Below, piece after piece: positions 35,255 to 64,000 of a stretch of DNA of 64,000 nucleotides; within the stretch, counting starts at the first letter, position 1; every line of letters starts with the position of its first letter. The position numbers were made by a program, and so were the translations under genes. Under the pieces are notes generated by a model. The model saw only the letters and a program-made list of their open reading frames with translations. It was not told the origin of the DNA and did not search any database. The stretch covers positions 3,286,001-3,350,000 of the forward strand of contig NZ_LT607751.1 of NCBI RefSeq assembly GCF_900090305.1. The letters are read 5' to 3'. Source of the DNA: Micromonospora siamensis (GTDB lineage: Bacteria > Actinomycetota > Actinomycetes > Mycobacteriales > Micromonosporaceae).

Positions 35255-35347
35255 ATGCGAGCAGATTCCACGCTCCGGACCCTTGACCGTCCCACCGTGG
35301 AGTTCTGCCTTGGCCTTGTTGAACCTCGGAATCGTCGCCCATGTTGA
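35255..35347 (+). CDS. Overlapping 30-residue leader ORF ahead of ribosomal protection gene
   Basis: The ATG is preceded by GACGAGGAGTGACG, the best Shine-Dalgarno in this area. The 30-codon frame (MRADSTLRTLDRPTVEFCLG, then LVEPRNRRPC) ends 38 nt inside the RPP gene in a different frame. The RPP gene itself starts at TTG 35310 with a weaker GGAG. Translation of this leader could gate RPP translation. Whether the peptide has any function is unknown. Confidence 0.45.
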   Translation: MRADSTLRTLDRPTVEFCLGLVEPRNRRPC

Positions 35348-37265: not shown

Positions 37266-37460
37266 GCGGCCGGCGAAACGTCGGCATTGGCGGGTGGTGA
37301 ACGACGGCTATCCCGGACGCCGGTCCTACGTCGATCATTGCCGGAGATTGATATGAGTCATTCTCACCTCCGGGTGGAACGCCCGGGCGCGGAGGGCGAG
37401 ACGTCGGCACCGGCAGCCGGGCGTACCGAAGGCCCGACTCCGCGTCCCCGGAGGATCGCC

Positions 37461-40400: not shown

Positions 40401-40646
40401 GGCGCCGCCCGCACCGTCAGCCGGGCGGTGCTGCGCTGGGAGTCCGCGTACGCCACCGCGTACCGGATCGAGGTTTCCGGCGACGGCAGCTCCTGGACGC
40501 CGGTGTTCGCCACCACCACCGGCAACGGCGGCGTCGACAACGTCACCTTCGCCCCGGTCGCCGCCCGCTACGTGCGGGTGTACGGGGTCAAGCGGGCCAC
40601 CTCGTACGGGTTCTCCCTCTACGAGTACGAGCTCTACGGACGGTGA
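37461..40646 (+). CDS. Secreted penicillin-acylase-family hydrolase with F5/8C domain
   Basis: This 1061-residue protein starts at an ATG after GGAGG and has a signal peptide (about 1-33, ending SPALA). The N-terminal nucleophile hydrolase region carries the autoprocessing site HGM-Ser383-NAVVV; the Ser becomes the free N-terminal nucleophile of the beta chain. The last 130 residues (from about 934, LAQGRPASASSTQF, then NKAVDGSLGSRWAS) form an F5/8 type C (discoidin/CBM32) domain, probably for carbohydrate or cell-wall attachment. Members cleave penicillins, acyl-homoserine lactones or lipopeptide acyl chains; the substrate is unknown here. Longer frames upstream lack a better ribosome site. 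Confidence 0.92.
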   Translation: MPRPALRARLAAVSAAALTASVLTVTPPSPALAATTFAANDYCLGQCADILPPGENGNATLAGILAHQALGTRPAHSSDQLDEYANLVYNYAGLTDEQIAHFYNDSSFGVPAAQVESTVSPRADVTIVRDRATGVPHVTGTTRAGTMFGAGYAGAQDRLWVMDLLRHVGRGNVTSFAGGAPGNRELEQSVWANSPYTEADLQAQVDALRTKGPRGQQLYTDVVDYIAGINAYIDKSIADDNYPGEYVLAGAGKPKHFTMTDLIATAGVIGGLFGGGGGSEIQSALVRVAARAKYGATEGDRVWAAFRSQNDPETVLTLHDGQSFPYGATPPGATSAVLPDAGTVTAEPLAYDASGGATTLTGTSTATQGLLGGLTNLRAHGMSNAVVVSGRHTTTGNPVAVFGPQTGYFAPQLLMLQELQGPGISARGAAFAGLNLYVLLGRGQDYAWSATSASQDLTDTYAVPLCTTDGTAPTLRTNSYLYHGQCLAMEVLEQRNSWSPTLADSTPAGSYTLRALRTKYGLVAYRGLVNGQPTAFTRLRSTYRHEADSAIGFQAYNDPSAMGSAAAFQASAASVGYAFNWFYVNSTEAAYYNSGANPVRSSVTDPNLPAKAEPAYEWVGWNPDTNDATYAPPSAHPQSVNQDYYVSWNNKQARDFGAADGNFSFGSVHRGQLLDGPVRAAIAQRKLGRADVVKIMADAAVTDLRGQQVLGDLLRVLDSAPVTDPALADAISKLRAWQQAGARRVETAPGSKVYQHADAIRIFDAWWPLLASAEFRTGLGPDLYAALVDAIEVNEAPSGGQNGGRDGTVSWTAQGQAHKGSSFQYGWWGYVDKDVRAVLGDPVAGGLGRAYCGGGDLGACRTALLGALGQAAAVPASTVYPGDKSCGAGDQWCADAIAQSGLGGITHPLIAWQNRPTYQQVVSFPARRGDDVTNLAQGRPASASSTQFLTSYTPNKAVDGSLGSRWASSYNDNQWLRVDLGAARTVSRAVLRWESAYATAYRIEVSGDGSSWTPVFATTTGNGGVDNVTFAPVAARYVRVYGVKRATSYGFSLYEYELYGR

Positions 40647-42880: not shown

Positions 42881-43660
42881 TCAGTGCACCCGCACCGATC
42901 CGAGCAGGTCCAGCACCAGGTCACGGTGGTCCAGCACGGTGAAGTGCCCGCCCGGCAGCAGCTGGCGGGTGAACGGACCGCTGGTCCACTCCCGCCAGCC
43001 GGCCACCTCGTCCACCGGCACGCTGGCGTCGTCCACCCCGACCAGAGCCGTCACCGGGCAGCCGAGCAGCGGCTCCGGCGCCGGCCGGTAGCCCTCCACC
43101 GCGGCGACGTCGCTGCGCAGCGTCGGCAGGTACTCCCGCAGGAGATCGGGGTCGTCGCGGATCACGTCGGGAATGCCGCCGTAGCGGCGTTGCAGCTCGT
43201 CGGTGAACTCCGCGTCGGAGAGCCCGGACAGCCGGAGCCGGCGGGCCTCCACCCCGGGTGGGGGTGACGCGCCGACCAGCAGGTGCACCGGTGCCGGCAG
43301 GCCGCGGTCGGCCAACCGTCGCGCCACCTCGAAGGCGACCAGTGACCCGAGGCTGTTGCCGAGCAACGCGAAGGGTGTGCTCAGCAGCGGCGCCGCCGCC
43401 CGGAGGAAGTCCTCGGCGAGGTCGGCGACCCGGTCGAGGCGGGGCTCGTCCCACCGGCTCTCGCGGCCGGGCGCCCGGACCGGGCAGACCTGGACCGGTG
43501 TCCGGCGCCCGCCGGTGACCCAGGGGCGGAACGCGGCCGCACCGCCGCCGGCGTGCGCGAAGCAGAACAGCCGCAGCGCGGGCGGCTGCCCGCCGGCGTC
43601 GAGCCACGGCAGCACGCGTGCCGGTGCCCCGGCGGCGGATGGATCGCCGAACTCGCGCAA
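42881..43660 (-). CDS. Type II thioesterase (TEII) of the NRPS cluster
   Basis: This 259-residue alpha/beta hydrolase has RLFCFAHAGGGA near the N-terminus, the nucleophile elbow G-N-S-L-G, the Asp in VGVDDASVP and the His in GGHFTVLDH. The start TTG (43660) is chosen because AAAGG lies 7-8 nt upstream; a GTG further inside is an alternative. TEII proteins remove misloaded acyl groups from carrier-protein arms. It is oriented away from the NRPS genes, 414 bp from the PAS-LuxR regulator. Confidence 0.9.
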   Translation of the reverse strand: MREFGDPSAAGAPARVLPWLDAGGQPPALRLFCFAHAGGGAAAFRPWVTGGRRTPVQVCPVRAPGRESRWDEPRLDRVADLAEDFLRAAAPLLSTPFALLGNSLGSLVAFEVARRLADRGLPAPVHLLVGASPPPGVEARRLRLSGLSDAEFTDELQRRYGGIPDVIRDDPDLLREYLPTLRSDVAAVEGYRPAPEPLLGCPVTALVGVDDASVPVDEVAGWREWTSGPFTRQLLPGGHFTVLDHRDLVLDLLGSVRVH

Positions 43661-44074
43661 CGCTCGTACCTTTCGTCGCGGGTCACGGCCGGGTCCGGCC
43701 CTGAGCGCAACCTCCAGGACAAGACCGTGACACAGGCCGGGCCGGCCCTCAACCGCGCCATCCGGGCCGCACCAACCGGGCCGCACCATCCGGCTACGGT
43801 GGCCTGCAAGATTTGCCATGCCCGCCGAGGAGATCGACCACCTTGACGGCATCATCGGACCGGTTGTAACTTCGGCCCGTATCGAAAAAGGGTCCGGCGC
43901 TGATCACCTGTGCCTGAATAGAATTGTTTACCGAGCGCCGGCGTGACCCCGTGAACGGTCCTTCCATTCACCGGTACGGGCCCTTTCCGGGGCTGTTCTG
44001 TTGCCGCTAATCGTCGTGCATCTGATTCACTGGCCTGGCGTGCCGCACAATCGACACGGGAGAGCTGTCACCAC
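43661..44074. other. 414-bp divergent promoter region of the NRPS cluster
   Basis: No convincing gene is seen. A 42-codon ORF from ATG 43818 has no ribosome site and is rejected. TTGACG at 43843-43848 with TGTAAC at 43865-43870 (16-bp spacer) is a plausible promoter reading toward the PAS-LuxR gene. The TEII promoter should also lie here. A-rich gaps occur between 43870 and 44070. Confidence 0.55.
43843..43870 (+). promoter_or_regulatory. Candidate promoter for PAS-LuxR regulator
   Basis: TTGACG, a 16-bp spacer and TGTAAC resemble a sigma-70-type (HrdB-like) promoter, about 200 bp upstream of the regulator start. It is not proven. Confidence 0.4.
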
Positions 44075-44812
44075 ATGTACACCGCGAATTCATTGGTAGA
44101 ACTGCCCTTCGTCCCGTATCCCCAGCAGCTGCCCCGGAACCAGCGCGCCGTCACGCCGGTGACGCCGGCCGCGGAGATCAGCGGCGAAGAGTACGGGGAC
44201 GTGGTGCTCTCCCTGTTCGAGAAGTCCGGCATCGGGTTGGCGGTCCTCGACCCGGCGCTGCGCGTACGGGCCTCGAACCAGGTGTTCAGCGAACAGTGCG
44301 GGCGGCCCCGAGAGGCCATCCGGAACCAGAGCTTCCTGGCCTTCCTGCACCTCAGCGTGCGACAGAACCTGCTGCGCCAGTTCGAGCGGCTGGTCCAGGG
44401 CCGGCCCACCCGGGCCGCCTGCCACTCGCTCGCCGCGCGTTTCGAGGGAACGGACGTCACCGGGCAACTGGCCGCCTTTCCGGTGGACGACGCCACCGGC
44501 AGGATCCGCATGATCGTGGTGCAGTTCGCCCCGGAGCGGGTCGACGAAACCGTGCCCGTGGTGCGGGAGCAGCGGAAGCTGACCGCCCTCACCGCCCGGA
44601 TCCTGGAGGGCGTGGCGGCGGGCGACCCGACCGTGCGGCTGGCGGCGAAACTCTTCCTGAGCCGCCAAGGAATCGAATACCACGTGAGCATTCTGCTGCG
44701 CCAGTTCAAGGTGCCGAACCGTACGGCACTCGCCGCGAAGGCGTACTCGATGGGGGTGTTCAGCATCGGCTGCTGGCCGCCCAAGGTGCTGCCCGAGTAC
44801 ATCCGATCCTGA
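44075..44812 (+). CDS. PAS-domain LuxR-type regulator, probable cluster-situated activator
   Basis: This 245-residue protein has a PAS-like domain at about 40-150 (YGDVVLSLFEKSGIGLAVLD, then VRASNQVFSEQCGRPREAI), and a C-terminal LuxR-type helix-turn-helix (LTALTARILEGVAAGDPTVR, then LAAKLFLSRQGIEYHVSILL and NRTALAAKAY). It is the first gene of the plus-strand NRPS set and likely switches it on. The ligand of the PAS domain is unknown; no receiver domain is present. Confidence 0.9.
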   Translation: MYTANSLVELPFVPYPQQLPRNQRAVTPVTPAAEISGEEYGDVVLSLFEKSGIGLAVLDPALRVRASNQVFSEQCGRPREAIRNQSFLAFLHLSVRQNLLRQFERLVQGRPTRAACHSLAARFEGTDVTGQLAAFPVDDATGRIRMIVVQFAPERVDETVPVVREQRKLTALTARILEGVAAGDPTVRLAAKLFLSRQGIEYHVSILLRQFKVPNRTALAAKAYSMGVFSIGCWPPKVLPEYIRS

Positions 44813-44973
44813 CCCCGCCCGAATTGCCTTCCGTCGCTGGCCCACGTCCGGAGTATCGATGCCCGGCGCGGGCCTCGCGAGCCCGCTGGTCGCCCACTGA
44901 AAGAACCCTTAGTGCCGCGGCGGCCGGGGCTCAACTAGAAATTGCCTTAGCCCGACGCGGCTTTACTGGGCGC

Positions 44974-45693
44974 ATGACGGCTACCGGTTACGACGGCGCC
45001 CTGGGTGTGCTCGGCGGGATGGGCCCGTCGGCGTCGGCCGGCTTCCTCCAGACCGTGTACGAGTCGGCGGCCGAGCGCTCCGGCCCCTTCGCCGAGCAGG
45101 TCCTTCCCCGCTGCCTGCTCGACTCGGACCCGGCCTTCCCCGACCGGACCGAGGTGATCCGCGCCGGCGGGGAGACCGAGTTCGTGGCGCGGCTCGCGCG
45201 CCGGCTGGCCGGTCTGGAACACCTCGGTGCCACCCGGATCGTGGTCGCCTGCGTGACCGCCCACCACTTCCTCGACCGGCTCGAACCGGACCGGCGCGCC
45301 CGGGTGATCTCGCTGGTCGACGTGATCCTCGACGACCTGGAGACCGTCGGCGCCGGGGAACGCCTGCTGCTGGTCGCGACCCACGGCACCCGCGACGCCC
45401 GCGTCCTGGAGCGCAGCGCCCGCTGGCCCGCCGTGGCCCACCGGGTCGTGCTGCCCGGGCCTCGGGTGCAGGAGACCCTGCACCAGCTGCTCTACCGGCT
45501 CAAGTGGGAACCCGTCACCGACGAGATCACCGACCGCTTCCTGCGGATCGCGGCCGAGCACGGCTGCCAGGGGTTGATCGCCGGGTGCACGGAGGTCCAC
45601 CTGCTGACCCGCCGGCTGCGCGGCGGCGGGCTGCGGATCGTCGACCCCCTGCTCACCATCGCCACACAACTGAAGTCCCTGCTCGCCGAATGA
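44974..45693 (+). CDS. Aspartate/glutamate racemase family protein
   Basis: This 239-residue protein has GVLGGMGPSASAGFLQTVYE at the start, a first catalytic-cysteine region RIVVACVTAHH and the second Cys in LIAGCTEVHLL, the pair expected for cofactor-independent racemases. It could make a D-amino acid for incorporation into the peptide, since no epimerase domain is seen in the NRPS genes. The ATG has a weak Shine-Dalgarno; 29 nt separate it from NRPS1. True substrate (Asp, Glu or a hydantoin/maleate-type compound) is uncertain. Confidence 0.86.
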   Translation: MTATGYDGALGVLGGMGPSASAGFLQTVYESAAERSGPFAEQVLPRCLLDSDPAFPDRTEVIRAGGETEFVARLARRLAGLEHLGATRIVVACVTAHHFLDRLEPDRRARVISLVDVILDDLETVGAGERLLLVATHGTRDARVLERSARWPAVAHRVVLPGPRVQETLHQLLYRLKWEPVTDEITDRFLRIAAEHGCQGLIAGCTEVHLLTRRLRGGGLRIVDPLLTIATQLKSLLAE

Positions 45694-45722
45694 CGGGGAC
45701 GACGGAACGAAGGAGTGCCCGG

Positions 45723-48395
45723 GTGAATGCGGACGAAGCGCTGCGGTACTGGCGGGAGCGGCTCGCCGGGGTCACCCAGCCGACGCGGCTGGGCGTCGAG
45801 CGTCCCGCCGCCTCCGGTGCAGGCGAGCGCGGCCGGGCCCGGCTGCCGTGGCCGGCGGGGCGGGTGTCCGAGCTGGAGCGCGCCGCCGCGACGGCCGGCC
45901 GGCGACCCGAACACCTCGTCCTGGCCGCCGTCGGGCTGCTGATCGCCGCCCACGCCGGCGAGCAGGACGTGGTGCACGGCGTGCTCCCCGACGGATCCGG
46001 CGGCGAGCCGTGGCCGATGCGGGTACGGGTGGACCCGCTGCGGCCCCTCGCCGAACACCTCGACGACGTCCGGGACGGCTGCGCGGCCGGCGCCGCACAC
46101 GCCGGACCGACCCCGGCCGAGCTGGCCGCCTGCGCCGGCCTCGCCGACGGCGTAGCCCTCTTCGGCACCGTCGTGCGGGTCACCCGCGCAGCGCCCGTCA
46201 CCACCGGGTCCGCGTACGACATCGAGCTGACCGTCGCGCTCGGCCCGGAACCCGGGTTGCACCTCGACCACGCCCACGGCCTGCTCGCCGGCGTCGACGC
46301 CGACCGGCTGCTCACCCACCTCGACCGGATCGTGTCCAGGCTGGTCGCCGCCGCCGACACCGACCCGGTGGGCGACCTCGGCCCGCTGTCGGACGCCGAA
46401 CTCGCCCAACTCCTCGGAGAGTGGAACGACACCGCGCGCGACCTCGGCGAGCCGCGCTGCCTGCACGAGCTCTTCGAACTCCAGGCCGCCCGCACCCCGG
46501 ACGCGCTCGCCGTCGTCCAGGGCGCGGACCGGCTCAGCTACGCCGAACTCGACGCCGCCGCCGATCGGCTGGCCGCCCGGCTCGCCGCGGCGGGCGTCGG
46601 TCGCGGCGACACGGTGGCGCTCTACCTGCGCCGCACCGTCCGGATGGTGGTCGCCCTGCTCGGCGTCCTGAAGGCCGGCGCCGCGTACGCGCCGGTCGAC
46701 CCGGCGCTGCCCGCCGAGCGGGTACGCGAACTGGTGGGGACGCTCGCCGCGCCGGTGGTGCTCAGCGACCCGGACGCCGTACCGGAGGTGCTGCGGCGCT
46801 GCGCGGGACTGCCCGCGCTGCGGGCGGCGCTCTGGCTGGGCGGCGACGGCCGGCCACCGGCGGCCGGGACGACGGACGGGGTGGTGGTCGACGACGCGCT
46901 CGCCGCGCCTGCGGCGGGTGCGCCCCGGCCCGACCGCGCCCACCCCGACGACCCGGCGTACACGATCTTCACCTCCGGCTCCACCGGCCGGCCCAAGGGA
47001 GTGGCGGTGGCGCACGCGCCGGCGGTGAACCTGATCCGCTGGGTCAACGAGACGTACCGGGTGGGCCCGGCCGACCAGGTGCTCTGCACCGCCTCGCTCA
47101 GCTTCGACCTGTCGGTCTACGACATCTTCGGGCTGCTCGCCGCGGGCGGCAGCGTCCGGGTGGCCGCGACCGAGGAACTGCGCGACCCGCAGCGGCTGCT
47201 GGCCGTCCTGGACGACGAGCCGGTCACCTTCTGGGACTCCGCCCCGGCCGCCTTGCAGCAGCTGGAACCGTTCTTCGCCCTGCGCGAGCCGCCCGCCGAG
47301 CACTCGCTGCGCCTGGTCTTCCTCAGCGGCGACTGGGTGCCGCTGACCCTGCCGGACGCCGCCCGCACCGCCTTCGCCGACCCGGAGGTGGTGGCGCTCG
47401 GCGGCGCCACCGAGGCGGCGATCTGGTCCAACCACTTCCCGGTGACCAAGGTCGACCCGGACTGGCCGAGCATTCCGTACGGCCGCCCGATCACCAACGC
47501 CCGCTACCACGTGCTCGACGCCGGGCTGCGGCCCGCGCCGGTCGGCGCCCCCGGTGACCTCTACATCGGCGGCGGCTGCCTGGCCACCGGCTACCACGCC
47601 GACCCGCGGCTGACCGCCGCCAAGTTCGTCCCCGACCCGTACGGCCACACGCCCGGCGGGCGGTTGTACCGCACCGGCGACCGCGCCCGGTTCTGGCCCG
47701 ACGGGGTGATCGAGTTCCTCGGCCGGCAGGACGACCAGGTCAAGATCCGGGGCTTCCGCGTCGAGCTGGGCGAGGTCGAGGTGAACCTGGCGGCCCTGCC
47801 CGGGGTGGGCTCCGCCGTCGCCGCCGTGCACGGCACCGCCCCCAACCTGCACCTGGTCGCGTACGCGGTGCCGAGCGCCGGGGCCACGCTGGACCCGGCC
47901 GGGTTGCGTGCCGGCCTGGCCGACCGGCTGCCGCCGTACATGGTGCCGGCGCAGATCGTCGCGCTGGACGCGTTGCCCGTCACCGCCAACGGCAAGCTGG
48001 ACCGGGCCGCCCTGCCGGCCCCCGACTTCGCCGACGCCGGCGGCGCGACGTACGTCGCGCCGCGTACCCCGGTGGAGGAGGTGGTGGCCGAGCTGTGGGC
48101 GGAGGTGCTCGGGGTCGACCGGGTCGGCGCCGAGGACGGCTTCTTCGACCTGGGCGGCCACTCGATGCTGATCCCGCAGGTGCTGGCCCGGCTCAGCAGC
48201 GACCTCCAGGTCACCGTGCCGCCGGTGACGGTGCTCAACCATCCCACCCTTGCCGGCTTCGCCGCCGTGGTCGAACGGGCCCTGCTCGACCAGATCGAGG
48301 CCGCCGAGGCTGCGCAGTCGGCGCAGGCGGCGGATACGGCGCAGGCGGCCGGGACCGGCGGGAAGGAGTCCCAGGGTGCCGGCCACCGACGCTGA
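45723..48395 (+). CDS. NRPS1: half C domain - A (Cys-like pocket) - PCP
   Basis: This 890-residue protein starts at a GTG after AAGGAG. Residues 1-220 look like only the C-terminal half of a condensation domain (ALRYWRERLAG onward; no HHxxxDG). The A domain has [10 protein letters not shown] from about 417, FDLSVYDIFG (A4), GGATEAAIW (A5 region), YRTGDRARF and NGKLDRAAL. The PCP Ser is at 814 in DLGGHSM. A pocket read by eye is D-L-Y-D-F-S-L-I-W-K, one to two changes from Cys-type codes (DLYNLSLIWK). It probably acts as the initiating module. It ends in an Ala/Glu/Gln-rich helix-like tail and overlaps NRPS2 by 20 bp. Confidence 0.93.
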   Translation: MNADEALRYWRERLAGVTQPTRLGVERPAASGAGERGRARLPWPAGRVSELERAAATAGRRPEHLVLAAVGLLIAAHAGEQDVVHGVLPDGSGGEPWPMRVRVDPLRPLAEHLDDVRDGCAAGAAHAGPTPAELAACAGLADGVALFGTVVRVTRAAPVTTGSAYDIELTVALGPEPGLHLDHAHGLLAGVDADRLLTHLDRIVSRLVAAADTDPVGDLGPLSDAELAQLLGEWNDTARDLGEPRCLHELFELQAARTPDALAVVQGADRLSYAELDAAADRLAARLAAAGVGRGDTVALYLRRTVRMVVALLGVLKAGAAYAPVDPALPAERVRELVGTLAAPVVLSDPDAVPEVLRRCAGLPALRAALWLGGDGRPPAAGTTDGVVVDDALAAPAAGAPRPDRAHPDDPAYTIFTSGSTGRPKGVAVAHAPAVNLIRWVNETYRVGPADQVLCTASLSFDLSVYDIFGLLAAGGSVRVAATEELRDPQRLLAVLDDEPVTFWDSAPAALQQLEPFFALREPPAEHSLRLVFLSGDWVPLTLPDAARTAFADPEVVALGGATEAAIWSNHFPVTKVDPDWPSIPYGRPITNARYHVLDAGLRPAPVGAPGDLYIGGGCLATGYHADPRLTAAKFVPDPYGHTPGGRLYRTGDRARFWPDGVIEFLGRQDDQVKIRGFRVELGEVEVNLAALPGVGSAVAAVHGTAPNLHLVAYAVPSAGATLDPAGLRAGLADRLPPYMVPAQIVALDALPVTANGKLDRAALPAPDFADAGGATYVAPRTPVEEVVAELWAEVLGVDRVGAEDGFFDLGGHSMLIPQVLARLSSDLQVTVPPVTVLNHPTLAGFAAVVERALLDQIEAAEAAQSAQAADTAQAAGTGGKESQGAGHRR

Positions 48396-51300
48396 CAAGC
48401 TGCGCGACCTGCTCGGCCGCCGGCTCGCCGCGGCCCGCCGCGACCGGGGGTCCCGGACCGCCATCGAACGCTCCACCGGCCCCGGTCCGGTCGCCCCGCC
48501 CCAGGAGCGGATGCTCTTCCTCGACGAGTTGGAACCGGGCGGCTCCGCCTACCACCTGATCCTCACCTTCCGGCTGGAGGGACCGGTCGACGCCGGGGCG
48601 CTGGAGCGGGCGCTGCGCGGCATCGAGGAACGCCACGAGGTGCTGCGCAGCCGGTACGAGCGGCGCGACGGCGCCGAGACGCTGGTGCCGGACGAACCGT
48701 CCTTCACGCTGCGTCGCGCCGACCTGACCGACGACCCGGACGCCGTGGCGGCGTTCCAGACCGCGGAACTCGGCCGCCCCTTCGACCTGCGCGCCGGCCC
48801 GGTGTGGCGCGGGGTGCTGGCCCGTACCGACGACACGCTGCACCACCTGGTGCTCACCGCCCACCACATCGCCATCGACGGCTGGTCGATGGACATCCTG
48901 CGTCACGAGCTGGCCCACGGGTACGCCGCCGAACTCGGCCGGGGCACCCGGCCCGCCGCGCCCGCCGTCCGCTACGTCGACTACGCGGCGTGGGAACGCC
49001 GGCGCCTCGACACCGGCGACCACGACGAGCAGCTCGCCTACTGGCGGCAGCGGCTGGCCGACCTGCCGCCCGCCCTCGAGCTGCCCACCGACCGCCGCCC
49101 GCCGCAGCGGCGCACCCGCCCCGGCGGCCTGGTGTCCGGCCTCGTCGACGCCGAGCTGGCCGCCGCCGTCCGCGCGCTGGCCCGCGACGCGGGGGCCACC
49201 CCGTTCATGGTGCTGGCCGCCTGCCTGCAGACCCTGCTGCACCGATACTCCGGCCGGTCGGACTTTCTCGTCGGCGTCCCGGTGGCGGGCCGGACCGAGC
49301 CGAGCCTCAAACCACTGATCGGCCTGTTCGTCAACACCGTCGTGCTGCGCGCCGACTGCCGTCCCGGACTGTCCTTCCGGGACCTGCTCGACCGGACCCG
49401 CGGCGACGCCGTGGCCGCGTTCGCCCACCAGGGCGTGCCCTTCGAACGCGTGGTGACGTCCCTGCCGCCGTCCCGGGCGGTCGCCGGCACGCCGTTGTTC
49501 GAGGTGATGCTGGTCTGGAACGGCGCCGACCAGGGCACCTGGGCGCTCGGCGACGCCAAGGCGGTCTACCTGCCCTGCCCGGCCACCGGTACCGCCAAGT
49601 TCGACCTGAGCCTCCAGGTCACCGAGGCGGGCGACGCCTACGAGCTGCTGCTGGAGTACGACCGCGAGCTGTGGGACGAGGCGAGCGCCGCCCGGATGCT
49701 GGGTCACCTCGTCACCCTCACCCGGGCCGCGGTCGCCGAGCCCGACCGGGAACTGGGCCGGCTGCCGCTGCTCGACGCCGCGGAGCGTGACCTGGCCGAC
49801 CGGCACGCGCGGGGGCCCGTGCGCGCGTACCCGGGGCCGGTCGACCTGGCGGCCATGGTGGCCGAGCGGGCCGCCCGCGACGGCGACGCGGTCGCGCTGG
49901 TGTGCGACGGCGCCGAGCTGACCCACCGGGACCTCGACCGGCGGGCCAACCGCCTCGCCCACCACCTGCGGGCGCTGGGCGTGCGGCCCGACCAGCCGGT
50001 GGCGGTGCTGCTGGAACGCTCCTTCGACCTGGTGGTAGCGATCCTGGGGATCGTCCGCTCCGGCGGCGCCTACCTTCCCCTGGACCCGGAGCACCCGGCC
50101 GGGCGGTCCGCGGGCGTCCTGCGCGACGCCGGGGTACGCGTCGTCGTCACCCACACCGCCCTGGCCGGCGCGGCCGAGGCCGGCGGCTGCACCCCGGTAC
50201 GCCTCGACGCCGACGCCACCGCCATCGCCGCCCACCCCGACACCTGGACCCTGCCGCCGGCCCTGCCCGACCAGCTGGCGTACGTCTTCTACACCTCCGG
50301 CTCCACCGGCCGCCCCAAGGGCGTGATGGTCAGCCACCGGGCCGCGCACAACCAGATCCGCTGGCAGGTCGACCGGTTCGGCATCGGCCCCGGCGAGACC
50401 GTCCTGCTCAAGACGAACGTCACCTTCGACGACTCGGTGGTCGAGGTGTTCGCCGCCCTGGCCGGCGGCGCCCGGCTGGTGATCGCCGAGCCCGGCGGCC
50501 ACCGCGACCCGGAGTACCTGCGCGCGCTGCTGGCCGCCGAGCGGGTGGGCTATGTCCGGTTCGTGCCCACCATGCTGGCCGCGCTGCTGGAACACGGCGG
50601 CGACGTGCCGGTGCCCGCGCTGCGGGTGGTCAAGAGCGCGGGGGAGGCGCTCCCGCCCGAGCTGGCCGCCCGCTGCCTCGCGGCGCTCGACGCGGAGCTC
50701 TACAACGCGTACGGTCCGACGGAGGCGGCGGTGAACGTCACCGTCGCGCGCTGCCGGCCGGGGGAGCCGATGGTGACGATCGGCACCCCGATCGAGAACG
50801 TCCGCTGTCACGTGCTCGACGACGCGCTGGCGCCGCAACCCGTCGGGGTGCCCGGCATGCTCCACCTGGGCGGTGTGCAGCTCGCCCGCGGCTACCACGG
50901 CCGTCCCGCGCTGACCGCCGAGCAGTTCGTGCCGGACCCGTTCGGACCGCCCGGCGGGCGGCTGTACCGCACCGGTGACCTGGTGCGCCGGCTGCCCGAC
51001 GGCCGGCTCGACTACCTGGGCCGGGCCGACCGGCAGGTCAAGGTCCGCGGCATGCGCATCGAGCTGGGCGAGATCGAGTCCGTCCTCGCCGAGCACCCCA
51101 CGGTCGGGCAGGCGGTGGTCGCCGCCCGCGACGACCGGCCCGGCGGGGCACGGCTGGTCGCGTACCTGCTGCCCAGCGCCGCCGGCACCCCCGACCCGGG
51201 GCAGCTGCGCGGCTGGCTCGCCGACCGGCTGCCCGAGTACATGGTCCCGGCCGCGTTCACCGTGCTGGCCGCCTTCCCGCTGCTGCCCAGCGGCAAGGTG

Positions 51301-56115: not shown

Positions 56116-57441
56116 GTGCGCGTCTTCAACCTGATCTGGGCCGGCCAGGCGACCTCGCTCATCGGCTCGGCGATGACCGCCTTCGGCGTCGGGGTGTGGA
56201 TCTTCGCCCGGACCGGGTCGCCCACGGCGTTCGCCACGCTGATCCTGGCGGCCTCGCTGCCCGGCCTGCTCGCCCTGCCGGTCGCCGGCGTGGTGGTCGA
56301 CCGCTTCGACCGGCGGCGGGTGATGCTGCTGAGCGACCTGGGCACCGCGACGGGGCCGCTGGTGCTGCTGATCCTGCACACCGCCGGCGCGCTGCAGCTG
56401 TGGCACCTGTACGTGATGGCCGCCGTCAGCTCGGTGTTCAAGGCGTTCCAGTGGCCGGCCTTCTCCAGCCTCGTCCCGCAGCTGGTGGCCAAGGACAAGC
56501 TCAGCCAGGCCAACGGCCGGGTGGGCATGGCCGAGGCCGTCGGCATGGTCTTCGGTGACCTGCTCGGCGGAGCGCTGTACGCGGTGCTCGGCCTGCGCGG
56601 CCTGCTCCTGGTCGACCTGGTCACCTTCGCCGTGGCGGCGACCACCATGCTGCTGTCGTACCGGCTGCGGCCGGCGATCCCGCCGGTCCGCGTCGAGGGC
56701 GCCCCGCGCCTCCCGATGCGCTCCGAGATGACCCAGGGCTGGCACTTCATCCGGCAGCGCCGCGGCCTGCTCGGCCTGCTGCTCTTCTTCGCCGGCTACA
56801 ACCTGATGATGGAGATGGCGCTGGTCCTGCTCGCGCCGTTGGTGCTCAGCTCGCACCCGCCGTCGGCGCTCGGCGTCATCAACGCCGTCGGCGCGGTCGG
56901 CATGATCGCCGTCAGTGGCGTGCTGAGCTTCACCCGGCAGCCGCGCCGCCTGGTCCGCGCCCTCCTGCTGGTCGCCGTCCTGCACAGCTGCCTGCTGCTG
57001 GGCATCGGCGCCAGCCACGGCACCCCGTGGCTGCTGGCCGTCGGCATGTTCGGCGTCCTGGGTGGCTACGCCGTGACCAACGCCGTCACCCCGACCATCT
57101 GGCAGCGCAAGACCCCGACGGAGGTGCAGGGCCGGGTCTTCGCCATCCGGCGACTGCTCGCCTGGTCGTCCGGCCCGATCGCGTTCGCCGCCGCCGGACC
57201 GCTGACCGAGTACGTCGGCACGCCGCTGGCCGACGGGCCGCTGGCCGGCTCGGTCGGGCGGCTCACCGGGTCGGGCACCGGCGGCGGGATCGCCATGGTG
57301 TTCTTGCTCTGCGGGGTGCTGCTGCTCGGCGTGGTGGCCGTCACCTGCCTGCCCCGGGCGGTACGGCGGCTGGAGCAGGACCTGCCGGACGCCGAGGTGG
57401 CGCAGGAGCCGACACCCGTGGGCGCGGCGGCGCCGTCCTGA
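56116..57441 (+). CDS. MFS transporter, probable peptide exporter
   Basis: This 441-residue protein starts with GTG directly after the NRPS2 TGA, with no gap. It has 12 predicted helices and MFS features (GVVVDRFDRRRVMLLSDL, then VKDKLSQANG-like VAKDKLSQANGRVGMAEAVG and QRKTPTEVQGRVFAIRRL), close to enterobactin-exporter/MFS_3-type carriers. It probably exports the NRPS product. Convergent with the minus-strand C-domain gene, 31 bp apart. Confidence 0.93.
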   Translation: MRVFNLIWAGQATSLIGSAMTAFGVGVWIFARTGSPTAFATLILAASLPGLLALPVAGVVVDRFDRRRVMLLSDLGTATGPLVLLILHTAGALQLWHLYVMAAVSSVFKAFQWPAFSSLVPQLVAKDKLSQANGRVGMAEAVGMVFGDLLGGALYAVLGLRGLLLVDLVTFAVAATTMLLSYRLRPAIPPVRVEGAPRLPMRSEMTQGWHFIRQRRGLLGLLLFFAGYNLMMEMALVLLAPLVLSSHPPSALGVINAVGAVGMIAVSGVLSFTRQPRRLVRALLLVAVLHSCLLLGIGASHGTPWLLAVGMFGVLGGYAVTNAVTPTIWQRKTPTEVQGRVFAIRRLLAWSSGPIAFAAAGPLTEYVGTPLADGPLAGSVGRLTGSGTGGGIAMVFLLCGVLLLGVVAVTCLPRAVRRLEQDLPDAEVAQEPTPVGAAAPS

Positions 57442-57447
57442 CCCATG

Positions 57448-57472
57448 GTCGGCCCGGCGCCGCCGCGCCGAC
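57448..57472. terminator. Hairpin between convergent NRPS transcripts
   Basis: gtcggc and gccgac close a GC-rich loop, with an inner cggcgccg palindrome, filling the whole gap between MFS and C-domain stops. It is a bidirectional terminator candidate. Confidence 0.5.
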
Positions 57473-58891
57473 TCAGCTCCCGGCGAGCTCCGCGTCCTTT
57501 AGGGCTGCGTCGGGGTGCCGGGCGACCTGCCGCATGACGGCGACGAACCGGTCGTGCAACCCGCGTACGGTGCTCTCCGCCAGCAGCGCGGAGCGGTACT
57601 TCCAGACCGCGACGTGGTCCGCGCCGCGCCGCCCGAGGCTCACGGTGAGGTCCAGCGCCGACTTCTCCGCGAACAGCTGCCGGTAGGAGACCTCGACGCC
57701 GGGGAACTCGGGCTCGGCGAAGCCGGTGTTGTCCAGCTGGAGGATCACCTGCACCAGCGGCAGGCGGCCGGGCGCCCGGGCCGGCCGGACGGCGTCCACC
57801 AGACGCTGGAAGGGCACCTCGCCCTGGGCGAAGTCGTCCAGCGCGTTCTCCCGGACCCGGCGCAGCAGCTGCGCGAAGGACTCCTCCGGCCGGACCAGCA
57901 CCCGCATCGGCAGCGTGTTGGTGAACACGCCCACGAGCTGCTCGGTCTCGGGCAGCTCCCGGCCGGCCACCGGCGACCCGACGACCAGGTCGCGCTGGTC
58001 GGAACCGCGCCACAGGGTGACCGCGAACGCGGCCAGCAGGGCCATGTAACCGGAGGCGCCGACCGCGCCGGCCGTCGTCTCCAGGTCGTCCACGACGGCT
58101 CCCGGGATCCGGGCGAACAGGGTGCCGGACTCCAGCGCCTCGGTCTCGCCGGGCGGCCGGTCGAAGGGCAGCGGCACGGTGGTGGGGGCCCCGGCCAGCC
58201 GCTGTCGCCAGTAGGACAGCCCTCGTTCCAGACCCGCGCCGGACTGCCGCTCCCGCTGCCCGATCGCGAAGTCCGCGTACTGGATGGGCAGCTCCGGCAG
58301 GCCGGCCGGCTCCCCGGTCACCCGGGCCCGGTACAGCTGGGACAGGTCGCGGTTCAGCACACCCTCGGACCAGCCGTCGGCGGCGATGTGGTGCATCCGC
58401 AGCACCAGGTGGTGTCCGCCGTCGGCGGCGCGCAGCAACGTCCACGACACCGGCGGCTCGGTGGCCAGGTCCAGCTTGCGGACCAACTGCTCCCGGGCGA
58501 AGGTCTCCAGCGCCTCGGCTGCCCCGTCCGCCGGGAGGTCGACGGTGGGCACCGGGACCTCCGACGGGGGCAGCACCCGCTGGAAGAGTCCGCCCCGGCC
58601 CGGCTCGACCACGGTGCGCAGCACCTCGTGGCGGCGGGTCAGGTCGCTGACCGCGCCGCGCAGCGCCGCGACGTCCAGGTCGCCGCGCAGGCCGATGACG
58701 AACACGGTGCTCTCCGTGGACGCGTCCGGGTCCAGCCAGTCCGACAGCCACATCCGCTCCTGGGCGAAGCTGGCCGGGACGATGTCGGGCCGGGGCGCGA
58801 CGGTCCGCCGGGCCTGCGCGGCACGGGCCAGCAGCCGCCGCTCGAAGTCGATCCGGGCCGCGGAGACCGCGGGCGTACGAGCCTCAGCCAT
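57473..58891 (-). CDS. Stand-alone condensation domain protein
   Basis: This 472-residue protein is a single C domain with an intact HHIAADG at 167-173 and the flanking patterns SFAQERMWL, RHEVLRT, VGSPVAGREL, and VGVFTNTLPMRV. The N-terminal 30 residues (RIDFERRLLARAAQARR) look like an amphipathic docking helix. The ATG overlaps the end of the P450 gene by 8 bp. It may supply the missing acceptor for a PCP from NRPS3 or the partial NRPS, or condense a non-amino-acid partner (inference). Confidence 0.93.
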   Translation of the reverse strand: MAEARTPAVSAARIDFERRLLARAAQARRTVAPRPDIVPASFAQERMWLSDWLDPDASTESTVFVIGLRGDLDVAALRGAVSDLTRRHEVLRTVVEPGRGGLFQRVLPPSEVPVPTVDLPADGAAEALETFAREQLVRKLDLATEPPVSWTLLRAADGGHHLVLRMHHIAADGWSEGVLNRDLSQLYRARVTGEPAGLPELPIQYADFAIGQRERQSGAGLERGLSYWRQRLAGAPTTVPLPFDRPPGETEALESGTLFARIPGAVVDDLETTAGAVGASGYMALLAAFAVTLWRGSDQRDLVVGSPVAGRELPETEQLVGVFTNTLPMRVLVRPEESFAQLLRRVRENALDDFAQGEVPFQRLVDAVRPARAPGRLPLVQVILQLDNTGFAEPEFPGVEVSYRQLFAEKSALDLTVSLGRRGADHVAVWKYRSALLAESTVRGLHDRFVAVMRQVARHPDAALKDAELAGS

Positions 58892-60125
58892 GCCGGCCGC
58901 CGTCCGTCGTCGGGGCGGGCCGCAGCGCGACGACCGCCTCCTCGAATCCGGCGATGTGGTTGGAGCGCACCCGACTCACCGGCCCGGGCACCTCGATGGT
59001 GGCCACCCGGCGGGCCACCTCGCCGAAGAGCACGCGCAGCTCACTGGTCGCCAGGGCGCCACCGAGGCAGTAGTGGGCGCCGTGGCCGAAGGTCAGGTGC
59101 CGGTTGGGTCTGCGGTCGAGGCGGAAGACGTCCGGGGCGTCGAAGACCGTCTCGTCGCGGTTCACCGACCTGCCCCACACCACGACCGGCTGTCCCGCCC
59201 CGATGCGCCGCCCGGCGAGTTCGGTGTCCCGGGCCGCGGTGCGCAGGGTGTGCGCGCCCGGCGTGGTCCAGCGCAGGATCTCCTCCACGGCGGTGGGCAG
59301 GACGGTGGGGTCGTCGCGCAGCGTCCGCCACTGGTCGGGGTGGGCGGCCAGGGCGAGCAGGCCGCCCACGGAGGCGTGCCGGGTCGTCTCGTTGCCGCCA
59401 GAGATCAGGCCGTCGCAGTTGAGCAGGATCTCCTCGTCGGTGAGCGGACGCCCGTCGACCTCGCCCCGGACCAGGGCGGTGACCACGTCCTCGCGCGGGT
59501 CGCGGCGACGCTGCTTCACCAGTTCCAGGTAGTACAGCAGGATGTCGGTGTGCGCCTCGGCCGCCGCCGCCGTCGGGCCGCCGTGCTCGTCGACGGCGCC
59601 GAAGGCCACGGTGGTGCGGTCCAGCATGAAGTCCCAGTCCTCGCGGGGGACGCCGAGCAGGTCGCAGATGACCGAGACGGGCAGTCGGGCGGCGATCCGC
59701 ACGAGGTCGCAGGTGCCCCGCTCGAACGCCTCGTCCAGGCAGGCGGTCACCGTCGCCCGCATGTTCTGCTCCAGCCGCTGCACCGTCCGCGCGGTGAACG
59801 CGGAACCGATGATCCGCCGGATGTCGCCGTGCCGGGGCGGGTCGGTGACGATCAGCATCTTGCGGGAGGCGGCCGCGGCGGCCAGCGGATCCCCGCCCAG
59901 CCGGATGCCGCGCTCGGAGGAGAAGGTCCGGCTGTCGCGGAGCACCCGTACCGCGTCGGCGTGCGCGGTGACCGACCAGTACGCGTCCCGGTTGGGGCGT
60001 ACGGTCCAGCGCACCGGGTCGTTGTGGCGCATCCAGCGCCACACCGGGTCGAGTACGCCGTCGCGGTGCAGCACCGGGTCGGCGACGTCCACGGTGGTCG
60101 GGTCGGCCAGCTCCGGCGCGGTCAT
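58884..60125 (-). CDS. Cytochrome P450 within NRPS operon
   Basis: This 413-residue P450 has the I-helix GLISGGNETTRHA, the ExxR pair in VEEILRW, and the heme ligand loop FGHGAHYCLGGALA. The open frame extends upstream, but the ATG overlapping the NRPS3 stop (ATGA) decides the start. P450s in NRPS operons often hydroxylate carrier-bound amino acids or cross-link aromatic rings. It sits directly behind an aromatic-type module, so beta-hydroxylation or aryl coupling are options (inference). The redox partner is not seen here. Confidence 0.93.
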   Translation of the reverse strand: MTAPELADPTTVDVADPVLHRDGVLDPVWRWMRHNDPVRWTVRPNRDAYWSVTAHADAVRVLRDSRTFSSERGIRLGGDPLAAAAASRKMLIVTDPPRHGDIRRIIGSAFTARTVQRLEQNMRATVTACLDEAFERGTCDLVRIAARLPVSVICDLLGVPREDWDFMLDRTTVAFGAVDEHGGPTAAAAEAHTDILLYYLELVKQRRRDPREDVVTALVRGEVDGRPLTDEEILLNCDGLISGGNETTRHASVGGLLALAAHPDQWRTLRDDPTVLPTAVEEILRWTTPGAHTLRTAARDTELAGRRIGAGQPVVVWGRSVNRDETVFDAPDVFRLDRRPNRHLTFGHGAHYCLGGALATSELRVLFGEVARRVATIEVPGPVSRVRSNHIAGFEEAVVALRPAPTTDGGRHG

Positions 60126-63100
60126 CGGGCGGCCTCCCGCTGCTCCTCGCCGAGGGCGAGCTGCATGATCGCCTCGGCGAGGTCGGCCAGCACCCGGTGC
60201 TCGAAGAGCAGCCGCACCGAGACGTCCAGGCCGGTCGCCGCCTTGACCCGGGCGATCACCTGGGCGGCGAGCAGCGAGTGGCCACCCTTGTCGAAGAACG
60301 AGTCGTGCACACCGATCCGCGGGACGTCCAGCACCTCCTGCCAGATGTCCACCAGGATCTCCTCCAGCGGGGTGCGGGGCGGCTCGTAGTCGACGCTCTC
60401 CGGCTGGACCCGCTCGCCGGCCTCGTCGATCAGCGCGGCCAGCGCGGCCCGGTCGGCCTTGCCGTTGCCGGTGATCGGCAGGCTCTCCAGGAAGACGTAG
60501 CCGGCGGGCCAGAAGTGGGCGGGGAGCCGGCCGGTGAGGTGGTCGCGCAGCTGCTCGGTGGAGACGGGCGGCCCGTCCGGCGCCCGGACGACGCAGGCGG
60601 TCAGCCCGACCACGCCCAGGCTGTCCGCGCGGGCCACGATCGCGCACTCGCGTACGCCGGGGTGGGCGGCGAGCGCGGACTCGATCTCGCCCGGCTCGAC
60701 CCGGAAGCCGCGTACCTTGATCTGGTCGTCCGCCCGGCCGGCGAAGACCAGTTCCCCGTCCGAGCGCCGGCGAGCCAGGTCCCCGGTGCGGTACAGCCGG
60801 GCGCCGGGCCGCGCGGAGTACGGGTCGGGCAGGAACCGCTCCGCGGTCAGCCCGGGCCGGCCGAGGTAGCCGCGCGCCGTCCCGACACCGCCGACGTACA
60901 GCTCGCCCACCACGTTGACCGGCACCGGGCGCAGGTCCTCGTCGAGCACCAGCGCGCTGTAGCCGGGGATCGCGGTGCCGATCGGCAGGGCGCCGTCGAC
61001 GTCGGACTCCCGCACCTCGTGGCCGGTGGCCCAGATGGTGGCCTCGGTGGGGCCGTACAGGTTGAAGCAGCGTGCCTGCGGCGTCCAGTGCCGCACGGCG
61101 CCGGCGGTGAGCACCTCGCCGGCCCCGATCACCACCCGCAGGCTCGGCACGTCGGCGGCGCCCAGCGCGGCGATCGCCGACGGCGGGGCCGTCCAGGAGG
61201 TGACCCGGTGCCGGCGCATCAGCGCCGCCAGCGGTTCACCGGGCACCAGCTCGTCGCGGGTGCCCAGGGCGAGGCGGGCGCCGGCCCCGACGGCCAGCCC
61301 GATCTCGAACATCGAGGCGTCGAAGCTGGGGGAGCAGAACTGGAGCACCGTGTCGTCGGGGCCGTGCGGCAGCCGGGCCCGCTGCGCGGCCAGCAGCGCC
61401 GCGTACGACGCGTGGGTGATCTGCACGCCCTTGGGGCGGCCGGTGGAGCCGGAGGTGTAGATGACGTAGGCCAGGTCGTCCCGGTGCGGACCGGGCCCGG
61501 TGTCGGTGGCGTCGGCGCATGCGTCGGGCGACAGCAGGGGGACGCCAGAGGCCCGGGAGAGCTCCTCGACGGCCGGTCCCGAGCCGATCAGCACGCTCGC
61601 GGCGGAGTCGGTGAGCATGTATTCGAGGCGGGCCGCCGGGTACTCCGGATCCAGGGGAAGGTAGGCGCCGCCGGCCTTGAGGACGGCGAGCAGCGCGGTG
61701 ATCCACTCGGTGGTGCGGGGCAGGCAGACGCCGACCCGGGCCTCCGGACCGACGCCGTGGGCGCGCAGGGCGGCGGCGAGCCGGTCGGCCCGGGTGTCGA
61801 GCTGGGCCCAGCTCAGCGACCGGTCGCCGTCGGTGACCGCGGTGACGTCGGGCCGTTCCCGCGCCCACCCGGCGACCAGCTCGGGCAGCAGCGGCGGCTC
61901 CGGGTCGGCCGCGGGGCCGGGCGCGAGCAGCGCCTCCCGCTCGGCGGCGCCGAGCATCGGCAGCTCGGACAGGCGCAGGCCCGGATCGGCCACCGCGGCC
62001 TCGAGCAGCGTACGCAGGTGCGCGTGCAGCCGTTCGATGCTGCCCGCGTCGAACAGGGCGGCGTCGTACTCCCAGGCGGCGGCGAGGCCCGAGTCGGTGG
62101 GCACCAGGGTCAGCGCCAGGTCGACGCCGGGGGCCTGGGTGTCCATCCGCACCACGTCGACGGTGAGCCCGTCGAGGTGGATGCTGTTCAGCGACACCTC
62201 CGCCAGGTGCAGCACGGTCTGGAAGAAGGTCTGCCGGTCGCCGTCCCGGTCCGGGCGCAGCTCCTTCACCAGCCACTCCAGCGGCACCTCCTGGTGCCCG
62301 ACGGCCTCCAGCGACACCTCCCGGACCTGCCCGAGCAGCCGGTCGAAGGTGGGGTCACCGGCCAGGTCGGTCCGGGCGACCACGGTGTTGACGAAGCAGC
62401 CGATCAGCTCGCCGAGGCCCGGCTGGCCGCGGCCCGCCATCGGCACGCCGACCAGCACGTCGGTCTGGCCGGAGTACCGGTGCAGGAGCGTGTCGAACGC
62501 GGCGAGCAGCACCATGAACACCGTCGCGCCGCGCCCGGCGGCGAAGGAGCGGACGTCCTCGATCAGGTCACCGGGGAGCGTGGCCAGCAGCAGGCGTCCC
62601 TGGGCGGCCGTATCGGCGGTACGCGGCCGGTCGGTGGGCAGCCCGGTCGGGTCGCCGGCGCCCTTGAGCCGCTGGCGCCACACCTCCATGGACGGCCCGA
62701 GCGTCTCCGGGGTGACGTTCTCCCGTTCCCAGGCGGCGAAGTCGGCGTACTGGATGGGCAGGTCGTCGCCGCGCGGCTCGGCGCCGGCGCGCAGCCGCCG
62801 GTAGTTCTCCACGACCTCCCGGTAGAGCAGCTGGAGCGACCAGCCGTCGGCGATCAGGTGGTGCAGGCCCAGGGCCAGGCGGTGTTCCTCCTCGCCGAGG
62901 CGCAGCAGCGCGGCGCGGAACAGCGGGCCGGCCTCGATGTCGAACGGCCGCTGCCAGGCCCCGGAGAGCCACTCGTCGGCGGTGCCGGCCGGGTCGTCGC
63001 GGTCGTCGCAGGCCACCCGCTCCAGCTCGATGCCGGACCAGGGCCACACCACCTGCACCGGATCGCCGTCGGCCGCGGCGAAGGTGGTGCGCAGCGCCTC

Positions 63101-63280
63101 GTGGCGGCGGACCACCGCGTTCACCGCCTCGTGCAGCAGCTCCGGGTCCAGGGCGCCGCGCAGCCGCAGGACGGCCTGGATGTTCCAGGCGGGTCCGCCG
63201 CCCTCCATCTGTTCCAGGAACCACAGCCGCCGCTGGGAGTACGACGTCGGGACGACGAACTTCTCCTCGGTGAGCTCCAT
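60122..63280 (-). CDS. NRPS3: C-A-PCP single module, aromatic-like pocket
   Basis: This 1052-residue protein starts at an ATG after GAAGGAG. C domain (HHLIADG at 140-146), A domain ([10 protein letters not shown] from about 609, [27 protein letters not shown]) and PCP (Ser1002 in GGHSL). A pocket read by eye is D-A-F-T-I-A-L-I-W-K, seven of ten positions shared with the GrsA phenylalanine code (DAWTIAAICK), so an aromatic amino acid is likely. It is linked by ATGA overlap to the P450 and follows the partial NRPS by 26 bp. Confidence 0.95.
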
Positions 63281-63306
63281 GCCTACTCCTTCGGGTCGGA
63301 CCTGCG

Positions 63307-64000
63307 TCAGCTCGGGACCGTGCGCCGGGCGGGGCGCGGGATGCGGGTGATGGGCGGGCGCCCGGTCCCCCCGCCGGCCGCCGCCCGGGACACCGCGTCG
63401 GCCAGGCCTTCGACCGTCCGTCCCTGCGCGAGCAGCGTCTCCAGCCGCAGCTGTACGCCGTGGGCCTTCTCGATCCGGGCGACCACCTGCGCGGCGAGCA
63501 GCGAGTGGCCGCCCAACTCGAAGAAGTCGTCCCGGATGCCGATCTCCGGCTGCCCCAGCACCTCCTGCCAGATCCGCAGCAGGTCCGCCTCGACCGGCGT
63601 GCGGGGCGCGACGACGGGCACGTCGCGTCGGCGCGGACCGGAACCCTGGGCCAGCAGGGCCGCGTGGTCGACCTTGTGGTTCGGGGTCAGCGGAAACTCC
63701 CGCACCAGGGTGATGGAGTTCGGGACCATGTAGTCGGGCAGCTCGTCGGCGAGGTGACGGCGCAGCAGCCCACCGGTCACCGCGTCCTGACCGGACGCCG
63801 GCAGGACGAACGCGAGGATCTGGCCGCCCAGCAGGCCGGTCTCCCCGACCAGCACCACAGCCTGGCTGACCCGGGGGTGGCGCTCCAGCGCCTGCCGGAT
63901 CTCGTTGAGCTCGATCCGGTGGCCGCGGATCTTGACCTGTCCGTCGGCGCGACCGGAGAACTCCAGGGCGCCGTCGGGCAGGAACCGGCCCAGGTCACCG
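63307..64000 (-). CDS. NRPS4 C-terminal part: A domain end plus PCP, cut by window edge
   Basis: The open frame runs from the right edge to 63307. It reads GDLGRFLPDGALEFSGRADG (A7/A8 region), QVKIRGHRIELNEI, a lysine loop TPNHKVDHAAL, and a PCP with GGHSL. After the PCP the tail (about 45 residues) has Arg/Pro-rich character (TRIPRPARRTVPS). The specificity pocket lies beyond the window. It is the most upstream visible gene of the minus-strand operon, so the cluster continues to the right. Confidence 0.92.
   Translation of the reverse strand, partial: GDLGRFLPDGALEFSGRADGQVKIRGHRIELNEIRQALERHPRVSQAVVLVGETGLLGGQILAFVLPASGQDAVTGGLLRRHLADELPDYMVPNSITLVREFPLTPNHKVDHAALLAQGSGPRRRDVPVVAPRTPVEADLLRIWQEVLGQPEIGIRDDFFELGGHSLLAAQVVARIEKAHGVQLRLETLLAQGRTVEGLADAVSRAAAGGGTGRPPITRIPRPARRTVPS

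What the first reader, a model, noticed from the sequence alone, without database searches (positions are those of the whole stretch)
42881..64000. NRPS cluster built as two converging operons
Plus-strand genes (regulator, racemase, NRPS1, NRPS2, MFS) and minus-strand genes (NRPS4 end, NRPS3, P450, stand-alone C) face each other and meet at a 31-bp gap. Bounded overlaps (20 bp between NRPS1 and NRPS2; 4 bp and 8 bp on the other strand) indicate tight coupling within each side. The assembly order is not simply colinear. I could not match this architecture to a known compound.
Basis: partly seen in the sequence, partly recalled or inferred. Interest (0 to 1): 0.8.

Follow-up and report, generated by a model that had tools for sequence, protein, structure and literature searches.

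The report
Two-operon orphan peptide synthetase cluster
A Micromonospora bacterium carries an uncharacterised gene cluster for a small modified peptide, made by two facing sets of genes whose junction enzyme appears to have lost the catalytic half of its joining domain and probably borrows a separate one.

Summary
A racemase/NRPS1/NRPS2/MFS operon and an MbtH/NRPS4/NRPS3/P450/stand-alone-C operon converge at a 31-bp gap; the stated overlaps are exact. NRPS4 and MbtH end just outside the window (65,345). The halves are one unit: both occur together in the 3 of 354 family genomes that carry the stand-alone C, under purifying selection. Yet they have different histories: the plus operon has orthologues in Amycolatopsis and other Micromonospora, paired with a different synthetase on the other strand. 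NRPS1 keeps only the C-terminal lobe of a condensation domain. In all 13 loci compared (own included) the partner carries a condensation domain with no A domain behind it; here it is the stand-alone C. In 6 loci an acyl-ligase-type gene lies beside the partner (3 checked by Pfam), so the chain probably starts there. Best model: NRPS4, NRPS3 (with P450), stand-alone C hands over to NRPS1, then NRPS2 and release by its terminal C; a pentapeptide. Main rival: NRPS1 is a loading module with a truncated C, which has a precedent. Substrates and product are unknown; MIBiG could not be searched. New variant of a known kind.

The parts
42881..43855 (-). stand-alone (type II-like) thioesterase, 324 aa
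   Evidence: PF00975 E 2.4e-38; 85%/66% identical in G061/G130
44075..44812 (+). PAS-LuxR regulator, 245 aa
   Evidence: PF08448 and PF00196
44974..45693 (+). Asp/Glu-type amino acid racemase, 239 aa, both catalytic-Cys motifs present
   Evidence: closest solved relative McyF, E 8.5e-26; NCBIfam cysteate racemase CuyB 114.7 bits, below its cut-off 190
45690..48395 (+). NRPS1: C-lobe only (own C-domain HMM positions 179-437 of 439), A1, T; 901 aa
   Evidence: A1 code DLYDFSLIW
48376..56115 (+). NRPS2: C-A2-T-C-A3-T-C(terminal); 2579 aa, GTG start
   Evidence: A2 DDVRKAAVN, A3 DARSLAQMT
56116..57441 (+). MFS exporter
   Evidence: PF07690 E 1e-34
57442..57472 (.). 31-bp gap between converging operons
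57473..58891 (-). stand-alone condensation domain with HHxxxDG, 472 aa
   Evidence: PF00668 E 2e-82; motif HHIAADG
58884..60125 (-). cytochrome P450, 413 aa
   Evidence: PF00067; closest solved relatives listed
60122..63280 (-). NRPS3: C-A4-T, 1052 aa
   Evidence: A4 DAFTIALIW
63307..64000 (-). NRPS4: A5-T without a C domain, 608 aa; the gene runs on to window-scale 65133
   Evidence: A5 DIFAGGGVA; MbtH gene follows at 65133-65345

Best explanation
An orphan NRPS cluster for a pentapeptide-sized product, made by two co-inherited halves that work in series. SHOWN: gene and domain content, joint conservation, C-lobe-only NRPS1, five A and five full C domains, no E and no fused TE domain found. 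INFERRED: (1) The minus half starts the chain: MbtH-assisted NRPS4 (A5-T) loads residue 1 and NRPS3 (C-A4-T) adds residue 2; the P450 hydroxylates a carrier-bound residue, probably at the beta carbon. (2) The stand-alone C acts in trans and joins this dipeptide to the residue on NRPS1, which lacks the catalytic half of its own C domain. (3) The racemase supplies a D-residue to this core, either for A1 (constant genomic partner) or for A3 (pocket arginine at position 239). (4) NRPS2 adds two more residues and its terminal C domain releases or cyclises the chain; the MFS pump exports it; the thioesterase edits. The plus half is a conserved core that has been combined with different initiating halves in evolution.
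Against: A truncated C domain also precedes a plain loading module in thermoactinoamide synthetase (PMC7253712, passages). In G866, whose racemase is only 44% identical, the racemase is followed by an A-T-C-A-T-C-A-T series without C-lobe, i.e. a racemase beside a loading module. The stand-alone C does not group with the partner-terminal C domains (the tree tool marks it as a long, unsure row). The racemase comes first in the plus operon and NRPS1/NRPS2 overlap, which also fits NRPS1 as starter. No acyl ligase was seen in the own cluster. If A1 loads a D-residue, the next C (NRPS2 C1) might be expected in the post-E clade and is not there (0 of 5 cluster C domains). The best solved P450 matches are CYP125MRCA entries, not peptide hydroxylases.
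Confidence: 0.5

Rival explanations
1. NRPS1 is the loading module: NRPS1, NRPS2, then NRPS4 (whose missing C is the terminal C of NRPS2), NRPS3, and release by the stand-alone C.
For: Truncated C before a loading module has a precedent (PMC7253712); gene order and 20-bp overlap of NRPS1/NRPS2; a C-ending NRPS2 and a C-less NRPS4 fit together; G866 has an A-T start beside its distant racemase.
Against: In 9 of the 10 other partners the start was seen and is a C domain (G267 runs off the stretch; that of G123 is in broken frames), and 6 have a ligase-type gene beside them, so chain start probably lies in the partner; NRPS2 ends in the same C in G057, G123 and Amycolatopsis although those partners need none; the four Dactylosporangium loci have NRPS1 but no NRPS2 in the stretches scanned.
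Confidence: 0.25
2. Two chains are made apart (dipeptide and tripeptide) and joined by an ester or amide bond, for example at a P450-made beta-hydroxyl, by the stand-alone C or the terminal C; a depsipeptide.
For: Two start modules without a working C, one C domain too many for a linear chain, and a P450 with carrier-bound amino acid hydroxylases among its relatives.
Against: A single linear route uses every C domain once; ester-forming C domains were not compared.
Confidence: 0.17
3. Two unrelated clusters that happen to lie side by side.
For: The plus half occurs elsewhere without this minus half.
Against: Same arrangement in three species, with other flanks in G130, and similar dS in both halves; the other hosts also keep a partner on the opposite strand.
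Confidence: 0.05

Closest known systems
   Same: same gene and domain order, A1 and A3 codes, orthologous C1-C3
   Different: partner half is C-A-T-C with MbtH and a ligase-type gene, divergent rather than convergent; product unknown
P450sky of skyllamycin biosynthesis and OxyD
   Same: entries 4l0e and 3mgx are among the nearest solved relatives (that these are P450sky and OxyD is recalled); PMC6920865 (passages) says Sky32 hydroxylates carrier-bound residues at the beta position
   Different: substrate untested; CYP125MRCA entries score higher
McyF aspartate racemase
   Same: nearest solved relative of the racemase, E 8.5e-26, both Cys motifs
   Different: function untested; also resembles cysteate racemase CuyB, below cut-off
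Stand-alone A-T modules of ramoplanin and enduracidin
   Same: free A-T with an N-terminal extension of about 300 aa needed for action in trans (PMC8949500, passages)
   Different: that review says their extension has no substantial known homology; here it is the C-lobe of a C domain; not compared by sequence
Thermoactinoamide synthetase ThdA
   Same: truncated C before the first A domain (PMC7253712, passages)
   Different: fused trimodular protein that starts the chain; no racemase or free C mentioned in the passages seen

Membership tests
Modular NRPS | C, A and T domains in module order with active-site motifs | tested here: met
Modular NRPS | fused TE or R release domain at the last module | tested here: not met
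   none found by Pfam in NRPS1-3; NRPS4 scanned with NCBIfam and own C/E/A/T HMMs only; a separate thioesterase gene exists
Free-standing trans-acting C domain | single C domain protein with HHxxxDG | tested here: met
Free-standing trans-acting C domain | condensation in trans shown | not testable with these tools
   needs enzyme assay
P450 beta-hydroxylase of carrier-bound amino acids | groups with P450sky/OxyD to the exclusion of other P450s | tested here: inconclusive
   4l0e and 3mgx rank third and fourth, behind two CYP125MRCA entries; no tree made
Asp/Glu racemase family | family sequence match with two catalytic cysteines | tested here: met
   alignment to McyF shows both Cys-Thr motifs; PF01177 on the homologues listed
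Cysteate racemase (NCBIfam CuyB) | score over curated cut-off | tested here: not met
   114.7 against 190
Post-epimerisation (D-donor) C domains | falls in the clade of C domains that follow E domains in this genome | tested here: not met
   0 of 5 cluster C domains
MIBiG-listed cluster | close match with same gene order | not testable with these tools
   no MIBiG collection on hand; passages of PMC9967187 list NRPS clusters of two Micromonospora strains, none with this layout among those seen

The most novel reading that the evidence does not exclude
A family of actinobacterial synthetases built from an exchangeable initiating half and a fixed core half, joined at a C-lobe-A-T module that has lost the catalytic lobe of its C domain and takes that activity in trans from an orphan C domain of whichever half it is paired with: a natural 'coupling joint' for swapping peptide halves.
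Probability: 0.45. Interest if true: 0.68.

Novelty: new variant of a known kind. Interest (0 to 1): 0.52.

Why it matters
If the trans hand-over is right, nature already swaps whole halves of NRPS assembly lines at one defined joint, on opposite DNA strands, in Micromonospora, Amycolatopsis and Dactylosporangium. That joint would be a ready-made docking point for combinatorial peptide synthesis. It also turns an odd gene layout into a testable order of assembly and marks an unassigned peptide family with a constant core (A1 and A3 codes) and a variable front.

Tried and rejected
Known-compound search: ten paper searches gave no cluster with this layout in the listings and passages seen; specificity codes as text gave 0 papers. 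Rejected: D-residues through E domains or post-E C domains (none in the cluster). Not supported: stand-alone C as an orthologue of the partner-terminal C domains (long branch, so weak). Not supported: conserved terminator in the gap. Left open: penicillin amidase as a cluster gene; beside the cluster on opposite sides in the window and G130, not found in the 40 kb taken from G061. The racemase was not found beyond the own genome in a 394-genome class sample at E<=1e-25, and in one of 72,556 plasmid records at 40%.

Rows dropped before the count of 13 loci: racemases of 39-45% in G332, G334 and G866, because no NRPS1-type neighbour was seen; the 16 other hits, 30-36% identical, were not inspected; G996 (scanned) and G600 (not fetched), hit only by the A1 piece. 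Weak points inside the 13: in G057 and G123 the C-lobe was not found by the HMM scan and only weakly (E 5.6e-4 and 8.3e-4); G123 has several breaks of frame in the core; in G061 the C domains were compared by tblastn only; the G267 partner runs off the stretch. Streptomyces and Streptacidiphilus carriers were not inspected for a partner.

Recalled, not tested: A1 as Cys- or diaminopropionate-like; DVGEIGSID as ornithine; arginine 239 as a mark of side-chain-carboxyl activation (as in microcystin and ACV synthetases); the names P450sky and OxyD for PDB entries. Species: genome size (6,250,119 bases) and closeness to M. mirobrigensis fit M. siamensis DSM 45097 (6.25 Mb, PMC5765111, passages); inferred only.

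Full report
WHAT IS THERE. The window is bases 3,286,001-3,350,000 of a complete 6.25-Mb contig with 38 matches to the condensation family in all. NRPS4 runs to 65,133 and an MbtH gene (65,133-65,345) starts the minus operon. A divergent thioesterase and a PAS-LuxR gene lie left of the racemase. Domain scan: plus side [C-lobe]-A1-T, then C-A2-T-C-A3-T-C; minus side A5-T, C-A4-T, P450, free C.

ONE CLUSTER. The free C at E<=1e-90 is found in 3 of 354 genomes of the family: the window's own, G061 and G130; the next best match in the genus is 39% identical. G061 is M. mirobrigensis DSM 44830 by the named record of the same length and match; G130 shares contig length 7,090,248 with Micromonospora sp. 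LH3U1. In both, everything from the thioesterase to two peptidase genes right of the cluster is present; G061 also shares flanks on both sides, G130 does not. dN/dS is 0.10-0.51 and 0.15-0.41. dS against G061 is 0.10-0.13 in the plus operon and 0.10-0.14 in the minus operon (MbtH 0.04); against G130 0.26-0.36 and 0.29-0.40; thioesterase and regulator are higher. G130 has the same domains but a break of frame inside A3.

TWO HISTORIES. Racemase relatives of 50% or more occur in 9 of 354 family genomes including the own (27 of 354 with weaker ones) and in 4 of 80 genomes of the genus of G975 (a fifth is 44%). All thirteen lie with an NRPS1-type gene. In four Amycolatopsis loci the order racemase, NRPS1, C-A-T-C-A-T-C, MFS is the same as here; in G057 and G123 the racemase follows the MFS gene; in four Dactylosporangium loci NRPS1 is followed by MbtH, and NRPS2 is absent from the stretch scanned. 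Names rest on contig lengths shared between (M. mangrovi for G057 differs by 100 bases) and, for G261, G262 and G264, on sharing a genus with G267. Each of the three C domains of NRPS2 groups with counterparts in Micromonospora and Amycolatopsis at bootstrap 100: the plus half is an orthologous core. The minus half is not the same elsewhere: the partner is C-A-T-C-A-T-C with thioesterase and MbtH (G057, G123; a P450 gene lies some 5 kb beyond), or C-A-T-C with MbtH, or a longer C-A-T series ending in C. The own stand-alone C and NRPS3 C group with none of these, though both are long, unsure rows. Of 33 stand-alone NRPS1-like entries, 11 share the longest contig length with a racemase entry (counted by eye; a lower bound). 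Further NRPS2 relatives of 63-85% exist in Micromonospora, Streptomyces and Streptacidiphilus.

WHY THE MINUS HALF SHOULD COME FIRST. A module without catalytic C must be a starter or be served in trans. In all 13 loci one C domain has no A behind it: a separate gene in own, G061 and G130, the last domain (or last but a weak T, 3 of 4 Dactylosporangium) of the partner in the ten others. In G057, G123 and the four Amycolatopsis loci a ligase-type A hit lies beside the partner; three of these six were checked by Pfam and are AMP-ligases with a DIP2-type C-terminus, which I recall as the mark of fatty acyl-AMP ligases. The first C domains of eight partners form one clade apart from the rest (G123 and G267 not included). 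So in those loci the chain probably starts in the partner, and NRPS1 is internal. Carried over to the window: NRPS4, NRPS3, stand-alone C, NRPS1, NRPS2, terminal C. Every C domain is then used once. This is inference by comparison. Against it: truncated C domains do occur before loading modules (PMC7253712, passages); in G866 a distant racemase (44%) stands before an A-T-C-A-T-C-A-T series without C-lobe; and the own partner is not homologous to the others.

CHEMISTRY. The racemase is nearest to McyF among solved structures and resembles, below cut-off, cysteate racemase. Which module it feeds is open. Its constant genomic neighbour is A1, also where NRPS2 is missing; but A3 (DARSLAQMT in own, G061 and four Amycolatopsis, DARALSQMT in G057; not read in G130 and G123, whose frames are broken there) has an arginine at pocket position 239, which I recall from modules that activate a side-chain carboxyl. 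A2 varies between loci, so the core is constant-variable-constant. An Asp/Glu-family member can also act on a finished cyclic dipeptide (NozR, PMC10156859, passages), so late epimerisation is not excluded. The P450 has entries 4l0e and 3mgx (P450sky and OxyD, as I recall) among its closest solved relatives, behind CYP125MRCA entries; Sky32 hydroxylates carrier-bound residues at the beta carbon (PMC6920865, passages). Beta-hydroxylation of the A5 or A4 residue is the likeliest role.

VERDICT. Real, intact in the window's genome and uncharacterised as far as these tools reach; ordinary parts in an unusual split. The new point is the C-lobe module with an orphan C in every partner examined.

Noticed in passing
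window 37287-40646 (and right of the cluster in G130, L098): A penicillin-amidase-family protein with an F5/8-type C domain lies left of the cluster in the window and right of it in G130, but was not in the 40 kb taken from G061.
   Followed up: partly
window-scale 65625-67998 (L002:1625-3998): A subtilase-family and an M23 peptidase gene right of the cluster are kept in all three carriers, also in G130 where the farther flanks differ.
   Followed up: partly
window 35283-37265: An EF-G-type GTPase of 660 aa; not tested further.
   Followed up: no
window 46000-56000: GC content of the NRPS1/NRPS2 stretch is 76-79%, against 67-74% in the first 46 kb of the window.
   Followed up: no
G000:C1:1720262-1721557 and 1728077-1729372: Two C domains of another NRPS cluster of the same genome are identical in protein sequence, pointing to a recent module duplication; a C-type match nearby (1731206-1732540) contains a TGA.
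   Followed up: no
G000:C1:1268527-1268862: A second A domain in this genome, within a 3557-aa frame, is 61% identical to the A1 pocket region; similar ones exist in G061 and G130.
   Followed up: no
L119:3318-5186: A carbamoyltransferase lies between the MbtH gene and the partner NRPS in the Dactylosporangium locus G262.
   Followed up: no
G261, G264, G267: Three further A domains with codes DVTTAALIE/DVTTGALIE, DLTKVGHIG/DLTKVGHVG and DLTSVVMVG recur beside the racemase-NRPS1 pair in these Dactylosporangium loci; their role was not studied.
   Followed up: no
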